From: Nakamurella flavida
Lineage (GTDB): Bacteria; Actinomycetota; Actinomycetes; Mycobacteriales; Nakamurellaceae
Direction of reading: 5' to 3'
NCBI RefSeq assembly: GCF_030811475.1
Contig: NZ_JAUSQV010000001.1
Span: 558,001 to 622,000 of the forward strand
Length of the DNA: 64,000 nucleotides
Every line of letters starts with the position of its first letter. The stretch's first letter is position 1. A program made the position numbers and the translations under genes. The notes under the pieces are model-generated. The model did no database searches. It was not told the origin of the DNA and was given only the letters and a program-made list of their open reading frames with translations. This document shows positions 17,336 through 55,947 of the stretch, piece after piece.

Positions 17336-17773
17336 TCAGGCGCCGGCCACGTCCACCGAGAGGTCGACCTGGATGTTGCCGCGGGTCGCACGGGAGTACG
17401 GGCACATCTGGTGGGCCTTCTCGACCAGGTCGCGGGCGACCGTCTCGTCGAGGCCGGGGATCTCGACGTGCAGTGCGACGGCGAGGTTCGGGCCGCCCTC
17501 ACCACCGAGGAACGACACGTCGGCCACGACGGCGGTGTCGGTCAGCGTCTGCTTCTCGATGCGGGCCACGGCCTTGAGCGCTCCGTGGAAGCACGCGGCG
17601 TACCCGGCGGCGAAGAGCTGCTCGGGGTTGGTCAGCGCGCCGCCCGGGCCACCCATCTCCTTCGGCACGGCCAGGTCGAACCCGAGGACGGAGTCCGAGC
17701 TCTCGACGTGTCCGTTGCGCCCGTCGCCCGATGCGGTGGCGGAGGCGGTGTACAGGGGAGTTGCGGTGGTCAC
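17336..17773 (-). CDS. ohr: Ohr-type organic hydroperoxide resistance protein
   Basis: A thiol peroxidase of the OsmC/Ohr superfamily (145 aa) that reduces organic hydroperoxides. It opens TTATPLYTASATASGDGRNG, the typical Ohr N-terminus. The two redox cysteines are in GYAACFHGAL (about residue 60) and HQMCPYSRATRGN (about 124). GTG 17773 has a GAGGAG site; the frame is open 21 codons further up without support. No OhrR-type MarR gene is adjacent. Confidence 0.93.
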   Translation of the reverse strand: MTTATPLYTASATASGDGRNGHVESSDSVLGFDLAVPKEMGGPGGALTNPEQLFAAGYAACFHGALKAVARIEKQTLTDTAVVADVSFLGGEGGPNLAVALHVEIPGLDETVARDLVEKAHQMCPYSRATRGNIQVDLSVDVAGA

Positions 17774-17931
17774 GATGGGCTCCTCGAGGTCGGCGGCATC
17801 CAGGGACGGATGCCAGCAGGGACAAGGTCGCCGCACGCCGAACCATTCCCGTCCGGGCGAATCGACCGCCCGGGGGTGTCCCGCCTTACCCCGGCCACCG
17901 CCGGCCCGGTGGGTGCAGCAGGATCGGAGAC

Positions 17932-18867
17932 ATGTCCGAGGAGAACCAGTCGTCGCAGCCGTCCCCGCGGCGCCGGCCGCCGCGTCGTCCCGTCCGCCCG
18001 GTCTTCTGGGTGCTGGCCCAGGTGGGATCGCGGGTCCGGGTCAAGGCGCCCGCCGCCCTGCGGCCGGGCCCGGCGGCACCGCCCCCGGAGACGATCCGCA
18101 TCCCCACCCGGCACGGGGCCCTGCGGGCCCTGGTGCACCGCCCGGCCGGGGCCGGCCGGGCGACGCCGGTCGTCGTGCACCTGCACGGCGGCGGTTTCGT
18201 GAACCGGTACCCCGAGCAGGACAGCCACATCGCCGGGCACCTCGTCACCGAGCTCGGGGTGACCGTGGTGCTGCCGGACTACGACACCGCCCCCCGGGTC
18301 CGGTACCCGGTCGCCGAGGAGGAGGTGTTCGACGTCGTGCGGTGGGTCCAGCAGGCGGACGGATGGGACGGTGCGCGCCTGCTGCTGTCCGGCGTGAGCG
18401 CCGGGGCCAAGCTCGCCGTCAACGCCTGCCAGCACCTGCGCGACACCGGTGGGCCCGGGGCATTGGGCGTCGGGCTCTTCGTGCCCGTCCTGGACGTCAC
18501 CCGCACAGATCGCACCTCGGTCATCCCCCGTCCGGCGATCGGCCCGTTCGTGCAGCGGTTCGTCGGCTGGAGCTACTTCCCGGAGGTCGCCCGCCAGCGG
18601 GAACCGCTGGCCTCCCCCTGCCGGGACCCCCACCTGGCCCGGGCCATGCCGCCCACCGTGATCCTGACCGGGGAGCAGGACACGCTGGCGCCGGAGGGCG
18701 CCGAACTCGCCCGTACGTTGCGGGCCGGCGGCGTGCACGTGGTGCACCGGGAGTACCCCGGGGTCGACCACGATTTCATGGCCACGGCCCGGGTGGACAC
18801 CGCCCGCGCGGCACTCGCGGAGCTGGCCGCGTTCTTCGCCGCCCGACTGGACGCGGCGACCGGCTGA
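17932..18867 (+). CDS. Alpha/beta hydrolase (HSL-type esterase)
   Basis: 311 aa. The hormone-sensitive-lipase hallmark VHLHGGGFVNRYP forms the oxyanion hole (about 81-93). The nucleophile elbow is GVSAGA (about 162-167), the acid is in LTGEQDTLAPE and the catalytic His in GVDHDFM. The N-terminal 30 residues are Arg/Pro-rich. ATG has a GGAG site. It is probably a short-chain ester hydrolase or small-lactone/ester detoxifier; the true substrate is unknown. Confidence 0.88.
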   Translation: MSEENQSSQPSPRRRPPRRPVRPVFWVLAQVGSRVRVKAPAALRPGPAAPPPETIRIPTRHGALRALVHRPAGAGRATPVVVHLHGGGFVNRYPEQDSHIAGHLVTELGVTVVLPDYDTAPRVRYPVAEEEVFDVVRWVQQADGWDGARLLLSGVSAGAKLAVNACQHLRDTGGPGALGVGLFVPVLDVTRTDRTSVIPRPAIGPFVQRFVGWSYFPEVARQREPLASPCRDPHLARAMPPTVILTGEQDTLAPEGAELARTLRAGGVHVVHREYPGVDHDFMATARVDTARAALAELAAFFAARLDAATG

Positions 18868-45861: not shown

Positions 45862-46110
45862 TCAGCTGTTCCGAGCGCGGCGCCGAGCCTGGAACAGCTG
45901 CCAGGCGGACCAAGTCGCGAATCCGACGACGACTACAGACAGGGACCGGAAGATGATCTTCCCGGGGGAGGATTCGCCATCGGTGATCATGGATATCAGG
46001 GTCCATACCGTTGCGACGAAGGCGAGGCTGATGACCACGAGAACGACCGGGTGGCCGAGCAGGCGAGACGCGGGCAAGTCCGACAACGGCTGGCGGGGCT
46101 GGTCAGGCAT
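45862..46110 (-). CDS. Small membrane protein with two transmembrane segments
   Basis: 82 aa from ATG 46110. TM1 is VVLVVISLAFVATVWTLISM and TM2 is IIFRSLSVVVVGFATWSAWQ, with a short polar loop between and an Arg-rich C-terminus (ARRRARN). No family recognised. It sits in a mobile-element remnant directly upstream of the GyrA-like small gene. Confidence 0.6.
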   Translation of the reverse strand: MPDQPRQPLSDLPASRLLGHPVVLVVISLAFVATVWTLISMITDGESSPGKIIFRSLSVVVVGFATWSAWQLFQARRRARNS

Positions 46111-46123
46111 GACGGGACTGTAG

Positions 46124-46395
46124 TCACAACCCCTTTGGGTCCGCGTCGTCCAGCTCAAGGTAGCGGTAGATAGTGGGTCGGCTGACGCCAAATTCGGCGG
46201 CGATCTGGGCAACGGTGAACCTGGCCTTGCCGTCATCACCGGTCTGGTCGTACATGGAGCGGGCGGTTCGGCCTGCCGGGGTCGAAGCTTGGGTTTGGGT
46301 CCGCCGACCCGGCCGCGAGCCCGGGCCGCGGCGAGGCCGTCGCGGGTGCGCTCGGACATCAGGGCGTGTTCGAACTCCCACCGCACCATGCTGGC
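46124..46395 (-). pseudogene. Serine recombinase (resolvase/invertase) C-terminal remnant
   Basis: Two frames combine to give the end of a Tn3/Hin-type recombinase: WEFEHALMSERTRDGLAAAR and ARGRVGGPKPK in one, then MYDQTGDDGKARFTVAQIAA and EFGVSRPTIYRYL (the HTH) in the other, ending at 46124. One indel near 46270-46290 separates them. The catalytic N-terminal domain is absent, replaced at about 46390 by a TraG fragment on the other strand. Confidence 0.8.
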
Positions 46396-46996
46396 CGGGG
46401 GTACAAAGATCGTCTCGTTGATCGTCGCCGACATCCTCGACGCAGCACGGGATCTGGCGTCGGCCTCGGAAGGGGCGCAGTTGGACCCGCCGTTGCCGAT
46501 CATCGCCGACGAGTCGGTGAACACGTGCCGCCTGCCGGACTGGGAGACGGTGCTGTCGGACTCGCGCCGCTGGGGGATCAGCGCCCACATGGTGGTGCAG
46601 ACCCGGTCATTGCTGCGCGGCGCCTACGGCCGGGACCAGGGCGAGGCGATCCGGAGCGCGGCCGGCATGCGGATGACGGTCGGCGGTGGAGAGGGCGCCT
46701 CGGACAGCAAGGAGCTGGCCGAGGCGTTCGGTGACGTCGAGGTGGCCACCTACTCCCGGGACGCCTCCGGTTCGGTCAACTCCCTGTCCAGCCGTCGTCA
46801 GGCCACCCGCACCGTCGCCGACACCCGCAACATCCCACCGGGCCGGGCGATCGTGCTGCCCTCCCAGATGCCGCCGGTCGAGATCGAGCTGACCCCGTGG
46901 TGGCGTCGCACAGACGCCGAACAGATCCAGCGCGCCGCCCGCGACTTCGACGACCCCCGCGCCCACGACCTGCCGCTGGCCGGGCGGCGACCGTGA
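46391..46996 (+). pseudogene. TraG/TraD-type conjugation coupling protein, C-terminal remnant
   Basis: About 200 residues of the TraM-recognition domain: TKIVSLIVADILDAARDLAS, PLPIIADESVNTCRLPDWET, DSRRWGISAHMVVQTRSLLR, MRMTVGGGEGASDSKELAEA, DTRNIPPGRAIVLPSQMPPV. The Walker-containing N-terminal part is missing; no start codon belongs to it. It shows that the island once held a conjugative element. Confidence 0.85.
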
Positions 46997-47219: not shown

Positions 47220-50200
47220 TTAGCCCTGGCGCGCGTCGTAGAAGACATCTCCGTCCTCGTCTGGCTGTGCCGCCAGGACGGCGTTGCGAACGGGCGCCGC
47301 CTGAGGGTTGACGACCGCCACCGGCGGGAGTGGATTGACGACCTGCCCGCCGCCCGGGGCCCCCAAGGGCTGCAGGCGAGCCTGGAAATCGTTCTGGGCG
47401 CGGATTTCAGCTCGAGCACTCACTGCCCCTTCGGTGTAGCTGACCATCGCCGCGCCGTTGGCCACTGCTCCTTCCAGCACGGCGGTGCCGAACTTCCCAG
47501 TGTCGAAGGCGGTGGCCTGGCCGGTGGCGAGGTCGAGTCCCTGGCCGATCGCGTGAGCCTCCGTAGCCCCGACCGCTCCCTCGACAAAGCCCAGGGCGAA
47601 TGATCCGGCCGCCCGAACGAGCAACGACCGGGAGGAAGCGATGGCCAGGAACGCCCCGTCTGTCGCGGCGGCCAACGCGACATCGATCATGAATTCCAGG
47701 CCGATCGCGAGCCAGTCTCCCCACGTGGATTCGCCGTCGCTCGTCCCGCGGGGGTCATCGCGGTTGATCGGGTCTTGTGAGGCGTAGTCGTAGGCGTTGA
47801 GGCCGCCGCCGATGACGGGGTCGGGCTGGGTAAACCGGCCGAGCACGGGCAGGTAGACCCGAGCGCCCATCAGGAGGTAGGCGGTCGACAGGCCGATCGT
47901 GTCAAGCCCGTTCTTCTGCTGCCAGGCCGGTGTGGCCGCTGACGGGTCGAGAGCGACTTGCCCGTTCAGCGCGTTCCCGAAGGGGTCGTACAAATGGGGC
48001 GGCGTAGTGGCAGGCGCGCCGTCGGCGCCGGTGTCGAACCAGCGGTCACCCCGCAGATCCGGATAGCCCCAGGTAGCGAGCGGGGCCGCGGGGTCGGCTG
48101 CCGCCACGTCCTGTCGGAGCATCGTCGAGGTGCCGACGGCCCCAGCGGCCGGAGCCGCCGGAGTGGTCCGTGTCCCCGCGGCGGGGGAGGCCGTCCCGAC
48201 GATCTCGCTCGAAGAATCGGCAGACGGAGACTGCGTACCAGCCGAAGTCTGAGGCACCGCGTCGGGCGTAGCGATGGGACCGGGTGTGGGGGTCGGGGGA
48301 TTCGGGAAGGTCATCAGCGGTGACGGTGCCGGCGTAGTCGGCGGCACCGCTGCGCTGCTGACGGCCGGGGGCGGTGTCGTGGTGGGGGGCGTCGGCTGCG
48401 TCGGCGCTGCGCTCAGTGAGGTGGGCGGGGCGGTGGAGGTGGTTTGCACGGTGACACCGCCGGCCAGGGTCAGCGTCCGGGAGAGCACGTGGTTGGCCTC
48501 GTCCAGCAGGTACCCGCCTTGGCTGTACCGGGCGGTCACCGCCGGCGCGCCTGCGGCAGTCATGGTGCGGGCGATCACCTGCCCGCCGCCGTCCCGGTGG
48601 TAGTCCACCGTGGTGGTGGCGTCGGCGGCGCGGACGAGCGCCCCGGTGTGGTCGTAGGCCAGAGCCAGTGCGCCCACCCCGACGAGGTCGGCCCCGGTGA
48701 GCTGGTCGTAGGTGAGGGCGCCGACCGTCGGGTCGGTGGTGGACAGCAACCGGCTCCCGACGGCGTCGTAGGTCCAGGTGGAGGTGGCGCCGTCGACGGT
48801 CTGGCTGGTGCGGTTGCCGTTCGCGTCGTAGGTCCATGCCCAGGCGCGGTGATCGACCTGGGCCGTGGTGTCCAGGGCTGCCTGGACCAGACGGCCGGAA
48901 CGGTCGTAGCCGTAGCGGAAGGTGGCACGGGTGTCCGGGGTCGTCCGCTCGTCGACCAGGATCCGGCCCGTCGCGCTGATCCGGTGCTTGTCGGAAAAGG
49001 TGCGGCCGTCGGCGGTGGTGTACGTGACCGCGGTGGCCCGTTCGTTGGCGTCGTAGGCCAGGGTCGCCTTCACCCCGTTGCCGAAGGCGACCGAATCCGG
49101 CCGGCCGTCGGCGAGGTACCGGGTGGTGGACAGCAGGGCCCCGTCGAGGGTGACGGCCAGCGGGCTGCCGTCCGGGGTGTGACTGGTGGTGGTGGTGCTG
49201 CTGACCGGGGCAGTCCCATCGGTCGGCGCGGTGGTGATCGTGGTGCTGACGGCCAGTCCCGAAGCCGGATCAAAGGTGGTTCGGGCGGTGGTCCCCCAGC
49301 TGTCGATGCTGGCGGTCAGCCTGCCGGTGATGTCCACCACCGACGTCGTCGTGGTGACCGTTCCGTCGGCCGCGGTGGCCGTGACCCGGGTCTGCAGAGG
49401 GTTGTTCTGGTAGCGATGGTCGGTGTCGGTGCTGGAGGAGGCAGTCTGGTCCCGTGCCTCGTGGTGCACCACCCGGCCCGCGGCGTCGAACTCCGTGCAG
49501 CTCGTGCGATGCCCGTCGGAAGTGGCCGACGTGCGTCCTGCGTTGTCGTACCAGGTCGAGTAGACGGCCGACGGGTCACCTGTGCCCGTGCGGTTCGGGT
49601 CGGTGGTGGCGCGCGGGTGGCCGGCCTGGTTCGCCGGGACGCTTCCCGGGCACGGTGCCGTGGCCTGTTCGTCCACCCCCCAGTAGGTGAGGGTGGTGGT
49701 GTCCCCGGCCGGTGACTGGGCAGTCAGCTGTCGACCCCAGGCTCCGGCGGCCGTGTCCAGCGACTCGTAGGTCTGCCGGGTGGTCAGTCCGCCGTCGTCG
49801 GTCCGGCTGGTGAGTTGTCCGGTCGACGGGTCCTGGAACACCGCCGTCGCGGTGGACGTGACGGGCTCGTCGGCGTTCAGGTTGTCCGCGGTCTTCTTGG
49901 CCGTCTTGAGCTGGTAGTCCGGGCTGAGCTGGTCCATCGGGATGGGCGACGGTGACAGGCCGGCGGGGCCGGCACTTAGGGTCAGGGTGCCGGCGCTGTC
50001 GGCGACGGGCGTCGCGACGGAGGTGTCGATGCGGATGCGGTGCGGGCCGGCCTCGAGATCGAGGGAATCGCACGCCGACTGCACGCAGGCCACGTTGTCG
50101 ACCCACAACCGGCTGGTCGAATCCGGCTCGACGGTCACGGCGTAGGTGCCCTTGGCGCCCACGGTCCAGAGACCGGTGAGGCGGGCGCTCCAGGGTTGTT

Positions 50201-52190
50201 GTTCCCCCCCGACCGGGCTGCGCGGCCAGTTCAGGGCCAGCGACTGGATCGGTTGCCCGGCCAGGGTGGGGCCGGTCTCCGTCCGGGCCGGTGCGCCGGT
50301 GTAACTCGGGTTGGCCCAGTAGGTGGTGGCCAGTCCGGTCAGCGGCTTCCCGTTCACAGGGTCGTCGGTGAAGGTGCGGTCCAGTAGGTAGGTGGTGGAC
50401 GGCGACGAGTCACCGACCCCTCCGATGGTGGGTCCGGTCGTCCGCGTGCGCACGCCGTCGGTGTAGTCGAAGGTGGACACCCCGCCGGCGGCGTCCGTGA
50501 CCGACTTCTGGTGGTCGGCCGCGTTGTCCCAGGACTGGGTGGATGTGCGGGCCGAGGCGTCGCGCCAGGTGGTCGGGGTCAGATACGCAGGGTCGAAGTC
50601 CACCTCGCCGAGGTAGCCGGCCGGGGTCGAGACGCCCGGCGTGCTGATCGTCGTGGTACCTGACCGGTAGGCGTAGGTGCGCGTCATCCGCACCGACGGG
50701 TCCCCCGTGGCCGGGGCGTCGATGGCCACGACGCGGCCCTGGTCGTCGTAGTGCAGCAGGGTCGTGGTCCCTGCCGCGTCCACGCCGGGTACGGCAGCCG
50801 CGACGGCGGCGGCGGCGAGGGGGGTGCGCAGGGCGGACATGCGACCGGCCGCGTCATAGGCCGCATCGGTCACCTGGGCATCCACCCCGGCCCCCGACAT
50901 GTCGACCGCCCGCCCCAGCTGAACACCGGATCCGCTGGCGACGTAGTGCATCTCGCTGCGTGAGCCGTCCCAGAAGTCGACGGCGCACAGGGCCCCCGCG
51001 GGCGCCGGGACGAACCCCGTCGGTTCGACGGTCGGGCACCCGGGGCCCCCGCCGTACCGGAGCTGGATCTGCTGCCCGGAGATCGGATCCGACAGGGACT
51101 GCAGCCGGTCATCGGCCCAGACCTGCTGCACGGAACGGACTCCGCTGTGGCTCACATCGGTGACGAAGGCGGTCGCATCCTGCGCGGGGGCGTCCGGCGT
51201 GGCCGAGAACACGGTGGTGACCTGGTCCTGTCCGGTGGTCGTCCAGGTTCCGTCGGCGTTGCGGGAGACCCAGGTGAAGGCGCCGGTGGGTTGCTGGCCG
51301 GACCCCCAGACCGGCGCGTAGAGGCCGGGGGAGGCCTCCACGAAGCTGACGGCGCTCCCGGAGGTGCCGGTGAGGGTGATGGAACCGTCGACCCGGGCGA
51401 TGAGCCCCGTCCACGACGAGCCGGAGGGGACCTCGAGCCGCCAACCACTGGGGACACCCTCCTGAGCGCGACTGTTCGGCGCGTAGGCCAGGGTGACGCC
51501 CAGGGCGCCGCTTCCACCGCTGACCGTGTGCGAGCTCCACGACGTGGCGGGTTCGCCGGTGGCCAGGCCGACCGTGATGGAGGAGAAGGAGTCGGTGGGT
51601 TGTCGTTGGGCGCGTTGGGCGTCGACCCTGAAGTAGTAGGGACCCTGCGTGCTTCCGTCGGGTCGGACGGCGACCCACTGGTACGCCGCTCCCTGCTGAA
51701 GGCGGCCGGACGGGTACCGCAGGGTCGGACTGGAGATGGTGTCCGACCACGACACCGTGCCGGCCGCGGCGGACAGGCCCCGGACCGTGAACGTGTACTG
51801 ACCCTGCTGCGGATCGGGCGGCTGCAGCGTCGGGGTCAGCGAGCTGGCGATACCGATCTTGTCGGACACCACGGCACTGCCGTAGTCGGGGGCGAAGGGC
51901 TGCCCGGCTCCGACGGACGAAGTCGGAAGTGCCGCGAGATCCGCAGCAGCCCCAGAACCGCCGGCCGACAGGACATCGACGCCGGCGGAGCTCGCCGGCG
52001 CCGCTGCGGCGACAGCGGACCGCACCGGATCTGTCGTGGCGGCCCGGGGCACGGGCACCTGCCCCGTGCATGCAGCGACCGTGAGGGCGGCGGTGACCGC
52101 GAGCGCGACGAGGCGGCAGGGCCGGGAGCGACGGGTCATCAGCGGGCCGGCACCGGCAGCTGGGTGGTCGGCAGCGGGGGTCGTCGGCAC
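47220..52190 (-). CDS. RHS repeat lipoprotein with PA14 insert, polymorphic-toxin-like
   Basis: 1656 aa. GTG 52190 has GAGGAGA; a lipoprotein signal follows (LVALAVTAALTVAAC). After a beta-rich 450-residue front, YD-type repeats appear (YDAAGRMSALRTP, YDDQGRVVAID). A PA14-like unit is present at about 600-730 (TTYWANPSYTGAPARTETGP, GTYAVTVEPDSTSRLWVDNV), then more YD repeats (FDAAGRVVHHEA, YDRSGRLVQAAL, YDANGNRTSQ). A disordered Pro/Thr linker of about 110 residues precedes the core LGRFTQPDPVIGGG and NAYDYASQDPINRDDPRG. The roughly 160-residue tail has alanine-rich hydrophobic helices and no known toxin motif. RHS shells enclose C-terminal effectors; that role is inferred. Confidence 0.88.
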   Translation of the reverse strand: MPTTPAADHPAAGAGPLMTRRSRPCRLVALAVTAALTVAACTGQVPVPRAATTDPVRSAVAAAAPASSAGVDVLSAGGSGAAADLAALPTSSVGAGQPFAPDYGSAVVSDKIGIASSLTPTLQPPDPQQGQYTFTVRGLSAAAGTVSWSDTISSPTLRYPSGRLQQGAAYQWVAVRPDGSTQGPYYFRVDAQRAQRQPTDSFSSITVGLATGEPATSWSSHTVSGGSGALGVTLAYAPNSRAQEGVPSGWRLEVPSGSSWTGLIARVDGSITLTGTSGSAVSFVEASPGLYAPVWGSGQQPTGAFTWVSRNADGTWTTTGQDQVTTVFSATPDAPAQDATAFVTDVSHSGVRSVQQVWADDRLQSLSDPISGQQIQLRYGGGPGCPTVEPTGFVPAPAGALCAVDFWDGSRSEMHYVASGSGVQLGRAVDMSGAGVDAQVTDAAYDAAGRMSALRTPLAAAAVAAAVPGVDAAGTTTLLHYDDQGRVVAIDAPATGDPSVRMTRTYAYRSGTTTISTPGVSTPAGYLGEVDFDPAYLTPTTWRDASARTSTQSWDNAADHQKSVTDAAGGVSTFDYTDGVRTRTTGPTIGGVGDSSPSTTYLLDRTFTDDPVNGKPLTGLATTYWANPSYTGAPARTETGPTLAGQPIQSLALNWPRSPVGGEQQPWSARLTGLWTVGAKGTYAVTVEPDSTSRLWVDNVACVQSACDSLDLEAGPHRIRIDTSVATPVADSAGTLTLSAGPAGLSPSPIPMDQLSPDYQLKTAKKTADNLNADEPVTSTATAVFQDPSTGQLTSRTDDGGLTTRQTYESLDTAAGAWGRQLTAQSPAGDTTTLTYWGVDEQATAPCPGSVPANQAGHPRATTDPNRTGTGDPSAVYSTWYDNAGRTSATSDGHRTSCTEFDAAGRVVHHEARDQTASSSTDTDHRYQNNPLQTRVTATAADGTVTTTTSVVDITGRLTASIDSWGTTARTTFDPASGLAVSTTITTAPTDGTAPVSSTTTTSHTPDGSPLAVTLDGALLSTTRYLADGRPDSVAFGNGVKATLAYDANERATAVTYTTADGRTFSDKHRISATGRILVDERTTPDTRATFRYGYDRSGRLVQAALDTTAQVDHRAWAWTYDANGNRTSQTVDGATSTWTYDAVGSRLLSTTDPTVGALTYDQLTGADLVGVGALALAYDHTGALVRAADATTTVDYHRDGGGQVIARTMTAAGAPAVTARYSQGGYLLDEANHVLSRTLTLAGGVTVQTTSTAPPTSLSAAPTQPTPPTTTPPPAVSSAAVPPTTPAPSPLMTFPNPPTPTPGPIATPDAVPQTSAGTQSPSADSSSEIVGTASPAAGTRTTPAAPAAGAVGTSTMLRQDVAAADPAAPLATWGYPDLRGDRWFDTGADGAPATTPPHLYDPFGNALNGQVALDPSAATPAWQQKNGLDTIGLSTAYLLMGARVYLPVLGRFTQPDPVIGGGLNAYDYASQDPINRDDPRGTSDGESTWGDWLAIGLEFMIDVALAAATDGAFLAIASSRSLLVRAAGSFALGFVEGAVGATEAHAIGQGLDLATGQATAFDTGKFGTAVLEGAVANGAAMVSYTEGAVSARAEIRAQNDFQARLQPLGAPGGGQVVNPLPPVAVVNPQAAPVRNAVLAAQPDEDGDVFYDARQG

Positions 52191-52253
52191 GGGTCTCCTC
52201 GGAGTCGGGCGAAATCCCGGGCGAACGTCCCGGGCAGTGGGGAGGTCGGAAGG

Positions 52254-53153
52254 TCAGACCTGGCGGTACTGCTGCAGGACGGCGACCCAGGAGTCGTGGG
52301 CCTCGGTGAAATCCGCGACGCAGAAGGGTCGATCAGCGGCCGGGAGGTCCGCGGCGAGGTCTGCGTGCCCGCCCGGGTCGTTGCCGTAGACCAGACACCG
52401 CAGGCGTGCGGCCCGCAGCTGAGCCGGCAGATGGTCGTCGAACAGATCCACCGTGGTGGTGCGATCGCCATAGCCCTGGAGGAAGTCCGCGTAGGCCAGT
52501 ACGTCCTGGTCCAGGCCCTGCACCCGGTCACCGACCAAGCGCACAGCGGCGGCGGCGAACGTGTCGGCGACGACCTCCTCCCCGCCGAGTACCGGCAGGC
52601 GGTAGGCCTCGACCAGCACGTGACCGATCTCGTGGAGCATCACCCCGGACGTCGCCTGCACGGTGGCGATGTCCAGCTCGGCCACAGTGGCGGTCGGCCG
52701 CTGGGACGACAGGGCGGCCCGGACCTGCGCGACAAAGGCGTAGGGCACCACGAGTTCGTGGCGGGCAGCGTCATAGGCGGCCCCACCGCCGCCCGCGGAG
52801 AACCGGACCCGGACATCGTGGGGAAGCGAGAGCTGCTCGGTCATCTCCGTCGTCAGGGCAGGAAACACCTCAGCCCGGCGCACCAGGTCCGCGGGCCCCT
52901 GCTCGGCAGGGTCGGTGGGCTCATCGAAGGCGAGGACGACCTCACCGGCCGGGGGCGCCTGCCCCTCCACGAAGGATCGACCGGCGACGAGCATGACGGC
53001 GGCTGTCACGACAGCGGCCGCCACCAGCACGACGGGCATCCACCGCCGTGCAGCGGGCGCGCGTGGGTTCCCACAGTGCGAGGCGGGTGCGGCAACGGGC
53101 GCCGACGCCGCCCGTGCCGACCGTCCGGCGGAGCCCGAGCCGGCCCCGGGCAT
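52254..53153 (-). CDS. Membrane-anchored DUF4344 zinc metallopeptidase
   Basis: 299 aa. A cytoplasmic head of about 40 residues and one TM segment (MPVVLVAAAVVTAAVMLVAG) place the catalytic domain outside. The site is SGVMLHEIGHVLVEAYRLPV (HExxH near residue 180) with GGEEVVADTFAAAAV downstream likely giving the third ligand. These are the hallmarks of DUF4344 putative metallopeptidases. Its ATG overlaps the stop of the upstream lipoprotein gene (TGATG) and it lies 64 bp before the RHS gene, so it may process the RHS product. Confidence 0.85.
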   Translation of the reverse strand: MPGAGSGSAGRSARAASAPVAAPASHCGNPRAPAARRWMPVVLVAAAVVTAAVMLVAGRSFVEGQAPPAGEVVLAFDEPTDPAEQGPADLVRRAEVFPALTTEMTEQLSLPHDVRVRFSAGGGGAAYDAARHELVVPYAFVAQVRAALSSQRPTATVAELDIATVQATSGVMLHEIGHVLVEAYRLPVLGGEEVVADTFAAAAVRLVGDRVQGLDQDVLAYADFLQGYGDRTTTVDLFDDHLPAQLRAARLRCLVYGNDPGGHADLAADLPAADRPFCVADFTEAHDSWVAVLQQYRQV

Positions 53154-54214
53154 CACTTGGAGATCTCGACCAGAACGGTGCTCGGCCCGGAGTTCGACCC
53201 CGCCACCACCACCCTGCACTTCAGGGTCGAGGTCGTGGTCGGCGAGGAGACCTCGCACTTGGTGGCCGGACTCGCCTTCGTGGGGTCGTCCTTGTTCACG
53301 GTGGCCTGGATCTCCAGCGTGACACCCACGTCAGTGGAGACGGCAGCTTCGGTCGCCTCGTATTCGACCGTCAAGGTGGCGTCGGTCTGGTTGGACCGAT
53401 AGCCCCCGTAATACGCCCGTCCGCGCCCGTCGCCGCCGTCGGCGGTCAGGGTGGCCCTGTCGTCAGCCTGATTGGTCGCCGTCGGATCGGCCAGGATCCC
53501 GGCCATGGTCGCCGGGCGCTGCTTGGTGAGCACGAGCCCGGGCACGTTGTTGTGGACCTCGACGGTGATCGGACGATTGCTGAAGGTGAAGTGGTAGTCC
53601 GCGCTGTAGGCCTTCTCGCCGGGGTCCTGCTTGCTGCAGAAGAGGAACTCCGTGGCGGTGCACCCCGACGAGTTGCTTCCGACATAGGGCATGTCGATGG
53701 AGTACCCGACCACGTCCTCGGTGCGGAACGGGTCCTCCTGCACGTGGTACTTCACGTACGCCTCGATCCCCGCCCCCTTGGACTGGTAGGAGGACCAGAC
53801 CGGATCTCCGCTCCCGGCAACGGGACTGACCGGTCCGTGGTTGTCGTAGATCTCGCCGTGGTTCTCGTACTGGTCGAAGGAGGCGAGGCTGAAGGCCCCG
53901 TTGAGCTGACCCGGCCCGGTGAACCTCTCGAGGTCGGCGTGGTAGTAGACGCACGCGGTGATCGAGTTCCCGCCCCGGTCGCAGTTCGTACCGGACATGA
54001 ACGAGATCGGCCCCTGCACGTCGGCGCGGACAGGAGCCGCGTCCGTGGACCCGGTGGACGTACCCGGGGGGGACACCCCGCCCGCGTCGGACACGGTTGC
54101 GGGAGAAGAGCTCAGTTCATCTGTGCTCGAAGCGTCCTGCGCGCCGGAGGAACACCCCGCCAAGGCGAGAAGGGCGATGACAGGCAGCACGAACCGAAGC
54201 CTGGAGTTGATCAT
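53153..54214 (-). CDS. Secreted lipoprotein of unknown function
   Basis: 353 aa. The signal peptide and lipobox (FVLPVIALLALAGCSSG) are clear, followed by a Ser/Thr-rich linker and a beta-rich domain with several Cys (GTNCDRGGNSITACVYY, SSGCTATEFLFCSKQ, KCEV, KCRVV), probably disulfide-bonded. No family recognised. ATG 54214 is chosen because it fits the signal peptide; the frame is open 45 codons further. First gene of a three-gene cassette with the metallopeptidase and RHS protein. Confidence 0.7.
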   Translation of the reverse strand: MINSRLRFVLPVIALLALAGCSSGAQDASSTDELSSSPATVSDAGGVSPPGTSTGSTDAAPVRADVQGPISFMSGTNCDRGGNSITACVYYHADLERFTGPGQLNGAFSLASFDQYENHGEIYDNHGPVSPVAGSGDPVWSSYQSKGAGIEAYVKYHVQEDPFRTEDVVGYSIDMPYVGSNSSGCTATEFLFCSKQDPGEKAYSADYHFTFSNRPITVEVHNNVPGLVLTKQRPATMAGILADPTATNQADDRATLTADGGDGRGRAYYGGYRSNQTDATLTVEYEATEAAVSTDVGVTLEIQATVNKDDPTKASPATKCEVSSPTTTSTLKCRVVVAGSNSGPSTVLVEISK

Positions 54215-55131: not shown

Positions 55132-55947
55132 ATGAGCGCCACCCAGACCAGAGTCGTGTTGGCCGGGCTGGCCGGACTCACCACCGTGCTCGTGACGGCG
55201 TGTTCTTCCGGCGCCGGGAACGACCAGGCCGTCGATACCGGCGGCGCCTCTCCACTGTCTCCGACCCAGCAGGCCGTCGAGGCCGTGGCCGCTGCTACGA
55301 CGAGCGCCGTGCCCGATGCGCCGTCCGGTGGTCTGCGATTGATCACCACGCTCGGCACCGGACAAGCCACCGGCGTACCGGACATCGTCACAGTGACGCT
55401 TGGCGTGCAGACCGCCGCCGCGACTGCGCAGGCAGCGTTGGACGACAACAACCAGCGGTCCGCCGGTCTCCTCACCGCCTTGAAGGCCCAGGGCGTCGCC
55501 GACGCCGACATCCAGACCAACCAGGTGTCGGTCCAACCGAGCTACGACCAGGCCGGCGGCATCACCGGTTACCAGGTCAGCAACATGGTCACGGCCACGA
55601 TCCGCCCGCTGGCCTCGGCCGGTGCTGTACTCGATGCGGTCACCCAGGCGACCGGCGACGCCATCCGCATCCAGTGGATCGCCCTGTCGATCGACGACGA
55701 CACCCCCGTCAGGGCGCAGGCCCGAGCCGACGCGGTCGTCAAGGCGAAGGCTCAGGCCGAGCAGTTGGCCGCGGCCGCCGGGGTGACTCTCGGACCGGTG
55801 TTCTCAGTGGTCGAGACCCCCCTGAACGGCGGCGGGGCGTACCAGAGCTACGCCGCGTCCTCTGCAGCCGCCGGATCGCCCGTCCCGATCGAGGCCGGCA
55901 CCCAGGACGTGTCCGTCCAGGTCCAGGTCGCCTTCGAGATGCGATGA
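55132..55947 (+). CDS. SIMPL (DUF541) domain lipoprotein
   Basis: 271 aa. Lipobox TVLVTACSSG, a linker of about 45 residues, then the SIMPL domain: LITTLGTGQATGVPDIVTVT, NQRSAGLLTALKAQGVADAD, IQTNQVSVQPSYDQAGGITG, and the C-terminal ARADAVVKAKAQAEQLAAAA plus VSVQVQVAFEMR. SIMPL proteins are secreted or periplasmic and mostly uncharacterised. ATG with GGGAGGAA. Confidence 0.9.
   Translation: MSATQTRVVLAGLAGLTTVLVTACSSGAGNDQAVDTGGASPLSPTQQAVEAVAAATTSAVPDAPSGGLRLITTLGTGQATGVPDIVTVTLGVQTAAATAQAALDDNNQRSAGLLTALKAQGVADADIQTNQVSVQPSYDQAGGITGYQVSNMVTATIRPLASAGAVLDAVTQATGDAIRIQWIALSIDDDTPVRAQARADAVVKAKAQAEQLAAAAGVTLGPVFSVVETPLNGGGAYQSYAASSAAAGSPVPIEAGTQDVSVQVQVAFEMR

What the first reader, a model, noticed from the sequence alone, without database searches (positions are those of the whole stretch)
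47220..54214. Three-gene lipoprotein, metallopeptidase, RHS/PA14 cassette
A Cys-rich lipoprotein, a membrane-anchored DUF4344 HExxH protease and a giant RHS lipoprotein are in one direction, with TGATG coupling and a strong ribosome site. The RHS protein has a PA14-like insert, a 110-residue disordered segment just before the core signature and an alanine-rich hydrophobic tail not matching known toxins. The protease outside the membrane could cleave the shell or linker to release the tail. No immunity gene follows the tail in the usual place.
Basis: inference. Interest (0 to 1): 0.7.

Follow-up and report, generated by a model that had tools for sequence, protein, structure and literature searches.

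The report
RHS shell protein with dedicated partner
A bacterium carries a large barrel-shaped surface protein, probably a self-cleaving container for a membrane-disturbing tail, encoded beside the same exported partner protein as in its close relatives and, here only, also beside a protein-cutting enzyme.

Summary
The three genes are real: lipoprotein, DUF4344 metallopeptidase and RHS lipoprotein, all on the minus strand. The trio is not the conserved unit. The conserved unit is the lipoprotein family ("companion") plus RHS, seen at 4 of 4 close RHS loci found: the window, a paralogue in the same genome, one congener, one genome of another family. The peptidase is at 1 of 4, and none of 11 other DUF4344-type loci read lies near an RHS gene. 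Only the window copy has a lipobox on both RHS and companion and a ~120-residue Pro/Ser/Thr/Ala insert. The RHS core keeps the R-D-D geometry of self-cleaving RHS proteins, so the peptidase should not be needed to free the tail. The Gly/Ala-rich tail resembles the paralogue's, matches no known toxin family and has no downstream immunity gene at 4 of 4 loci; in kind it recalls the hydrophobic cargo of Tse5 and of a Bacillus teneurin-like protein. Best reading: a surface-anchored, self-cleaving container for a membrane-active fragment, with an exported partner (perhaps a lipid-binding beta-sandwich; weak evidence). A peptidase role is an untested one-off. New variant of a known kind.

The parts
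53153..54214 (-). companion: 353-aa lipoprotein, beta-rich in the (poor) model, Cys78/88/320/333 invariant in 4 members; gene partner of this RHS type
   Evidence: beside the RHS gene at 4 of 4 close loci
52254..53153 (-). DUF4344 metallopeptidase, 299 aa, N-terminal hydrophobic anchor, HEIGH active site
   Evidence: Pfam 8.6e-32; active-site alignment with 5 relatives; TGATG overlap
47220..52190 (-). RHS/YD-shell lipoprotein, 1656 aa (GTG start after gaggag; alternative ATG 17 codons in)
   Evidence: Foldseek matches to Rhs and teneurin shells
49920..50390 (-). PA14-type insert, about residues 601-757 (edges by eye from the alignment; Pfam stretch itself 661-706)
   Evidence: sub-threshold in this protein; PF07691 in 16 of 18 members of A5
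48078..48443 (-). Pro/Ser/Thr/Ala-rich disordered insert, residues 1250-1371, not seen in the 17 other RHS of A5
47745..47990 (-). RHS core (residues 1401-1482) with R1444, D1457, D1479 in the spacing of the aspartyl autoprotease
   Evidence: motif description in PMC13018210
47223..47744 (-). C-terminal tail, 174 aa, Gly/Ala-rich, one hydrophobic segment, similar to the paralogue's tail

Best explanation
This is a surface-displayed RHS/YD-shell protein with an exported companion. The shell folds around its own C-terminal ~170-residue fragment, cuts it loose by the built-in aspartyl autoprotease, and holds it until contact with another membrane, where the hydrophobic Gly/Ala-rich fragment inserts and disturbs that membrane. 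The companion is exported to the same side of the membrane and works with the RHS protein, as membrane-binding partner or as protector of the producer. At the window both have become lipoproteins tethered to the producer's own membrane, and a gene for an anchored metallopeptidase lies between them; it may trim the exposed Pro/Ser/Thr linker that this copy alone carries. Shown by sequence: operon, family membership, core/PA14-type insert/linker, autoprotease geometry, companion-RHS linkage at 4 of 4 loci, tail similarity to the paralogue, lack of a downstream immunity gene. Inferred: self-cleavage, encapsulation, membrane activity, companion function, any peptidase action.
For: Companion beside RHS at 4 of 4 close loci: window; paralogue L028 (divergent); congener L029 (same strand); L101 in another family (same strand, 6 bp apart) (hhalign of the L101 companion to A2: probability 87.7, E 3.4e-6). 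The order of identities is the same for RHS and companion (paralogue-G012 closest, then window, then G325). R-13-D-22-D core spacing in 17 of 18 aligned RHS, window included (the other has 13/21; 16 by script, 2 by eye), and in G325 (by eye). Shell: phmmer best RhsP 8.8e-5, also Tse5 9.1e-4; Foldseek ranks 1, 2, 4 Tse5, TLP, RhsA. Window tail against paralogue tail z 6.0, 0 of 500 shuffles, against at most 3.0 for 13 distant tails. Among distant relatives, the 2 hydrophobic-tail loci with a close downstream gene have multi-TM products, against 0 of 7 for other tails (post hoc p 0.028). Precedents: Tse5-CT (PMC10684867, passages) and BiTLP CTD (PMC13018210, two of three parts of Results).
Against: The tail is predicted with very low confidence. 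Window-G012 tail similarity is weak (z 2.4, 13 of 500 shuffles) and within the range for distant tails; composition alone can give high values (up to 4.9 for the paralogue's and 5.5 for G012's tail against distant tails). G325's tail is about 40 residues longer (218). The Leu at the cut of BiTLP is a Thr here (T1483). Only 4 loci. The companion profile A2 is not very sensitive: it reported just 3 loci in 298 + 394 genomes, and G325 came only through the RHS search, so its spread is unknown. The window tail has one marginal hydrophobic segment (1.73). No toxicity data exist. The companion model is poor (pLDDT 44.7).
Confidence: 0.4

Rival explanations
1. One reading: the anchored DUF4344 peptidase cuts the shell or the linker to release a toxic tail; the three genes are one cassette.
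For: Co-directional operon with TGATG overlap; active site intact; all three products with membrane anchors; the linker and the lipoboxes occur only in the copy that has the peptidase.
Against: Peptidase absent at 3 of 3 sister loci; only the window's genome has DUF4344 among the 17 of its genus searched; 0 of 11 other DUF4344-type loci read have an RHS gene in the stretch; the RHS core keeps its own autoprotease geometry.
Confidence: 0.15
2. Non-toxic surface RHS protein: an adhesin or structural shell whose tail is only a plug; no immunity gene is needed because nothing is toxic.
For: No known toxin domain, no downstream immunity gene at 4 of 4 loci, tail shared with the paralogue.
Against: Autoprotease geometry kept; the window's tail is less like its two sisters (0.22-0.37 in the two tail blocks) than the rest of the protein (0.33-0.60 in alignment blocks 101-1600); in kind close to hydrophobic cargoes that were toxic in two tested RHS proteins (PMC10684867, PMC13018210).
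Confidence: 0.25
3. The companion is the immunity protein, encoded upstream instead of downstream and exported because the fragment acts from outside.
For: The constant neighbour (4 of 4); exported like the RHS protein; less conserved than the RHS protein as a whole (0.20-0.38 against 0.34-0.54).
Against: Position is upstream or divergent, unlike the close downstream gene at 9 of 15 distant relatives; no binding evidence.
Confidence: 0.18
4. The peptidase is an unrelated passenger gene between companion and RHS, and the window locus is otherwise the ordinary pair. (Compatible with the best explanation, which leaves the peptidase's role open.)
For: Unique to this copy; DUF4344 members in 8 loci of three relatives are stand-alone genes with lipoprotein-like starts (read); a mobile-element scar abuts the RHS 3' end.
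Against: Translational coupling and membrane anchoring; catalytic residues preserved.
Confidence: 0.45

Closest known systems
Rhs pore-forming effector Tse5 (PMC10684867, passages read; PDB 8cp6)
   Same: YD shell (Foldseek rank 1), core cleavage, ~16 kDa C-terminal fragment that acts on membranes
   Different: Tse5 belongs to a T6SS; here a Sec-type lipoprotein with PA14-type insert and a companion gene; the two tails were not compared by sequence
Bacterial teneurin-like proteins, BiTLP (PMC13018210, abstract and two of three parts of Results read; PDB 9ifo)
   Same: surface YD shell, encapsulated short hydrophobic CTD, R-D-D autoprotease (Foldseek rank 2)
   Different: the paper reports an additional gene directly downstream of almost all TLPs and Sec/SPI signals in Gram-positives; here none downstream and an SPII-type lipobox
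PA14-containing RHS proteins of the same order (unnamed relatives L063-L078)
   Same: RHS plus PA14 architecture, same core spacing
   Different: 13 of 15 are 2,066-2,501 aa, varied tails, 9 of 15 followed by a close downstream gene; no lipobox in 15 and no companion match in their genomes
DUF4344 (PF14247) putative metallopeptidases
   Same: HExxH and the following EE..AD signature
   Different: the 8 loci read look like stand-alone lipoproteins; here TM-anchored, 26-29% identical to the nearest full-length matches, in an RHS operon
Aegerolysin / actinoporin-type membrane-binding beta-sandwiches
   Same: weak fold resemblance of companion residues 213-353
   Different: low-confidence model, no sequence match, additional N-terminal half and conserved Cys pairs

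Membership tests
RHS/YD-repeat shell proteins | RHS repeats and RHS-associated core | tested here: met
   PF05593 1e-8, TIGR03696 4.6e-13; Foldseek 4.3e-24 to the Tse5 shell, though TM-scores are low and the model is not a closed shell
RHS/YD-repeat shell proteins | aspartyl autoprotease geometry (R, D, D) | tested here: met
   R1444, D1457, D1479; spacing 13/22. Activity itself not tested; the Leu at the cut is not conserved
Polymorphic toxin systems | exchangeable C-terminal toxin domain | tested here: inconclusive
   no toxin family matched; tail similar to the paralogue (z 6.0) but window-G012 only z 2.4, within the range of distant tails
Polymorphic toxin systems | immunity gene directly downstream | tested here: not met
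   0 of 4 close loci; same-strand ORFs listed there run antisense to convergent genes
Bacterial teneurin-like proteins | FN-plug, NHL and teneurin-type YD shell | tested here: inconclusive
   no TEN_YD-shell or NHL Pfam match in the window protein at E<=0.1; TEN_YD-shell in 2 of 18 aligned members; PDB 9ifo is Foldseek rank 2
PA14 domain | PF07691 profile | tested here: inconclusive
   window sub-threshold (16.5 vs 24 bits); the two close sisters no match at E<=0.1; 16 of 18 members of A5 at E<=0.01, best 2.6e-25. I read it as a diverged PA14
DUF4344 metallopeptidase | PF14247 profile and HExxH | tested here: met
   8.6e-32; HEIGH plus EE..AD aligned with 5 relatives
Tse5-like pore formers | membrane insertion of the released fragment | not testable with these tools
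   one hydrophobic segment only
Aegerolysin/actinoporin fold | fold of companion C-terminal domain | tested here: inconclusive
   VIA-align Z up to 6.8; Foldseek best E 0.011, to a pilin; model pLDDT 44.7 overall; no sequence match

The most novel reading that the evidence does not exclude
A two-component weapon unlike the RHS systems I read of: an aegerolysin/actinoporin-like lipid-binding companion docks an RHS container on a target membrane, the container delivers a membrane-active fragment, and in this strain the pair is tethered to the producer by lipid anchors and set free by an operon-encoded membrane metallopeptidase that cuts a purpose-built linker.
Probability: 0.1. Interest if true: 0.8.

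Novelty: new variant of a known kind. Interest (0 to 1): 0.45.

Why it matters
If the companion is a true partner, this type of RHS container would have a second component instead of a downstream immunity gene, which would bear on how such containers dock or how their producers are spared. The window copy and its sister locus in the same genome form a natural pair, with and without peptidase, linker and lipid anchors, for testing whether proteolysis gates RHS release. In the held library no paper has both 'aegerolysin' and 'RHS repeat', and 'DUF4344' occurs in two papers, in one of them as a domain abbreviation in a figure legend on T4SS effectors (one passage read); subscription papers are mostly not held.

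Tried and rejected
The own-genome RHS search gave 13 matches at three places; the third (L030) looked like a different architecture by eye and was set aside. The genome-contig scan with the full RHS protein gave one planctomycete relative at 27% identity, not pursued. Viral-contig scan with the companion: no relative. Plasmids: companion no match; DUF4344 in two Streptomyces plasmids at 27%, of which one of two was examined and has no RHS in the stretch read. PADLOC: no match for the three proteins at E<=0.01. The companion's DUF7537 match is sub-threshold (18 vs 31.7 bits) and in 1 of 4 members: rejected. The peptidase's weak Imm49 match (14.4 vs 30.1 bits): rejected as chance. The companion model is too poor to name a fold; Foldseek nothing at E<=0.001. 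PDB sequence search with the peptidase: one chance-level match. Idea that the RHS 3' end was truncated by the mobile-element scar: unlikely, because the paralogue and G012 also end 173-195 residues after the core without an immunity gene. L066 (1 of 16 distant regions) was dropped from the tail counts because its RHS frame ends before the core. For L069 a 161-aa ORF 16 bp downstream was not counted as a gene because of its codon composition, and L072's contig ends about 530 bp behind its RHS gene. The crude RHS motif test also flagged single core-like strings without YD repeats in ORFs of 235-509 aa in L091, L096 and L098, and one in the window at 17770-18771; I dismissed these. One extra companion match (G116, 79 residues, E 8e-4) was not followed.
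Full report
Observation. The three genes exist as described, but all on the minus strand: companion lipoprotein 54214-53153, DUF4344 peptidase 53153-52254, RHS 52190-47220. The first two overlap as tgatg; the RHS GTG follows gaggag. Pfam gives DUF4344 8.6e-32 and RHS_repeat 1e-8; NCBIfam gives the RHS core 4.6e-13. The tail has no family match. The PA14 reading is plausible but not clean: the window's score is below Pfam's cut-off, the two close sisters give no PA14 match at E<=0.1, yet 16 of 18 aligned RHS members match at E<=0.01, best 2.6e-25, and the sisters align with the window through that region. Protective-antigen chains and an anti-sigma-factor domain also appear in the fold search of the shell (that these carry PA14 domains is recalled).

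What is conserved. The own genome (4.32 Mb, one contig) has one DUF4344 gene, the window's, and a second RHS of the same type at 1,066,863-1,071,626 with a companion homologue beside it, divergently transcribed, and no peptidase. A congener, G012, has the same pair on one strand, again without DUF4344. A genome of another family in the same class, G325, has the pair on one strand 6 bp apart and no peptidase in the gene list that I read; its companion matches the profile of the other three at probability 87.7, E 3.4e-6 for that one comparison. So the companion-RHS pair is present at 4 of 4 loci whose RHS N-terminal half scores over 300 bits (896, 932, 928, 309), and the peptidase at 1 of 4. For both proteins the order of identities is the same (paralogue-G012, then window, then G325).

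How far it spreads. With the RHS N-terminal profile, 20 of 298 relatives have a match at 1e-8, of which only G000 and G012 are full-length strong matches; in 202 genomes of the class, 3 match at 1e-15: G000, G325 and a partial one, G352. The companion profile matched 2 of 298 relatives (3 loci) and 1 of 394 class genomes, the own one. Since G325 came only through the RHS search, these companion counts are lower bounds; whether G325 was among the 394 is not listed. DUF4344 is in 4 of 150 relatives and in none of the other 16 genomes of the genus. In 296 genomes of the phylum the window's peptidase domain matched 4, the own one included; the nearest matches over most of its length are 26-29% identical. 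Ten genome loci and one plasmid locus with DUF4344-type matches were read in stretches of about 13-19 kb; none held an RHS gene by a crude motif test that flagged the RHS gene in 6 of 6 controls. One of these, G887, is a 53-residue match and may not be a true member; three stretches had single core-like strings in short ORFs without YD repeats, which I dismissed.

What is special at the window. Only this RHS has a lipobox (1 of 19 RHS examined by regex in the first 110 residues, start codons of the distant ones uncurated), and its companion has one too. The sister RHS and companions look like signal-peptidase-I exports; G012's companion has an ISGC string only if a start upstream of the likely ATG is used. 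Only this RHS has the ~120-residue A/P/S/T-rich insert before the core: 198 residues from the last GGV-like motif to the core against 65-94 in 17 others; the model gives it pLDDT 25-31. Lipid anchors, linker and peptidase therefore occur together, but this is a single case.

The RHS core and tail. R1444, D1457 and D1479 keep the spacing (13, 22) of the RHS aspartyl autoprotease. The script found it in 16 of 18 aligned proteins; the two others, read by eye, give 13/22 and 13/21. The description of the motif (DPxG-X18-DPxG plus an essential Arg) comes from PMC13018210, of which I read the abstract and two of three parts of the Results. The Leu at that paper's cut is a Thr here. The tail is 174 residues. 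Smith-Waterman against shuffles gives z 6.0 (0 of 500) to the paralogue, 2.4 (13 of 500) to G012, and 6.3 (0 of 500) between paralogue and G012. As a control, against 13 distant tails the window reaches at most 3.0, the paralogue 4.9 and G012 5.5, so shared composition explains part of such scores; only window-paralogue stands well above its control. Hydrophobic stretches: 1 in the window tail (1.73), 2 in the paralogue, 1 in G012, 3 in G325.

Immunity. Same-strand ORFs behind the RHS gene at the 4 close loci run antisense to convergent genes (a TraG piece, a histidine kinase, a RidA-like gene, an AMP-ligase-like gene; names by eye except TraG), so I count 0 of 4 with a downstream immunity gene, against a close downstream gene at 9 of 15 distant RHS loci (p 0.087, not significant). 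Of those 9, the two with hydrophobic tails (L065, L075) have multi-TM products; the 7 with other tails have none, one of them with a single N-terminal segment (post hoc p 0.028). This fits hydrophobic RHS tails acting on membranes, but numbers are small.

Mechanism. Two tested RHS proteins store a hydrophobic C-terminal fragment that depolarises or permeabilises bacterial membranes: Tse5 (PMC10684867, passages read) and BiTLP (PMC13018210). Tse5 and TLP are also ranks 1 and 2 in the fold search of the window shell (E 4.3e-24 and 1.5e-23), although TM-scores are low (0.21-0.30) because the model (mean pLDDT 58, pTM 0.50) is not a closed shell; by sequence the best PDB match is RhsP (8.8e-5), with Tse5 at 9.1e-4 (the name RhsP is). 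I therefore favour a self-cleaving surface container for a membrane-active fragment.

Companion. Its best-modelled part (residues about 213-353, pLDDT mostly 50-70) gives, in the second-look aligner, Cry34Ab1 (Z 6.8, 90 residues, 2.8 A), ostreolysin A (6.3, 100, 3.9 A) and several actinoporins (4.4-5.8, 89-100 residues), i.e. lipid-binding beta-sandwiches (kinship of these families recalled), mixed with a Mobiluncus adhesin (6.7, 157 residues, 6.2 A) and pilins. The tool warns that Z under 8 may mean only a common arrangement; Foldseek itself had nothing at E<=0.001 and a pilin first, and sequence searches found nothing. It is a lead, not a classification. The alternative, that the companion is the missing immunity protein, is not excluded.

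Verdict. Ordinary parts: RHS shell, PA14-type insert, DUF4344. Not ordinary: an exported companion beside one RHS type at 4 of 4 loci in two families, no downstream immunity gene, and at the window a combined gain of lipid anchors, linker and peptidase.

Noticed in passing
window 45862-46996: Mobile-element scar right behind the RHS stop: C-terminal TraD/TraG coupling-protein piece (PF12696 1.9e-16, + strand) overlapping a resolvase-type HTH remnant (PF02796 7.3e-6, - strand); GC 0.64 in the 45-46 kb block.
   Followed up: partly
L070 9508-11610, L072 1888-3438, L067 10648-11535: Three of 15 distant RHS loci have a GH25-type lysozyme gene close by; two are confirmed by Pfam with LGFP repeats, the third (L067) only by eye: possible cell-wall opener for RHS delivery.
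   Followed up: partly
L071 2190-3971 and L073 9199-10965: A divergently transcribed ~590-aa protein without Pfam match at E<=0.01 sits beside two distant RHS genes; the two share a stretch by eye.
   Followed up: no
L071 10509-11354 and L077 1511-2365: TPR-type proteins directly downstream of two distant RHS genes, candidate immunity proteins (Pfam for L071 only; L077 by eye).
   Followed up: no
L030 2789-8167 and downstream: Third RHS locus of the same genome: long non-RHS N-terminal half (lysozyme-like by eye), no core found in that frame, followed by a run of ORFs with lower GC3.
   Followed up: no
window 55132-55947: SIMPL (DUF541) lipoprotein-like gene divergent to the companion gene (PF04402 2.6e-47).
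   Followed up: no
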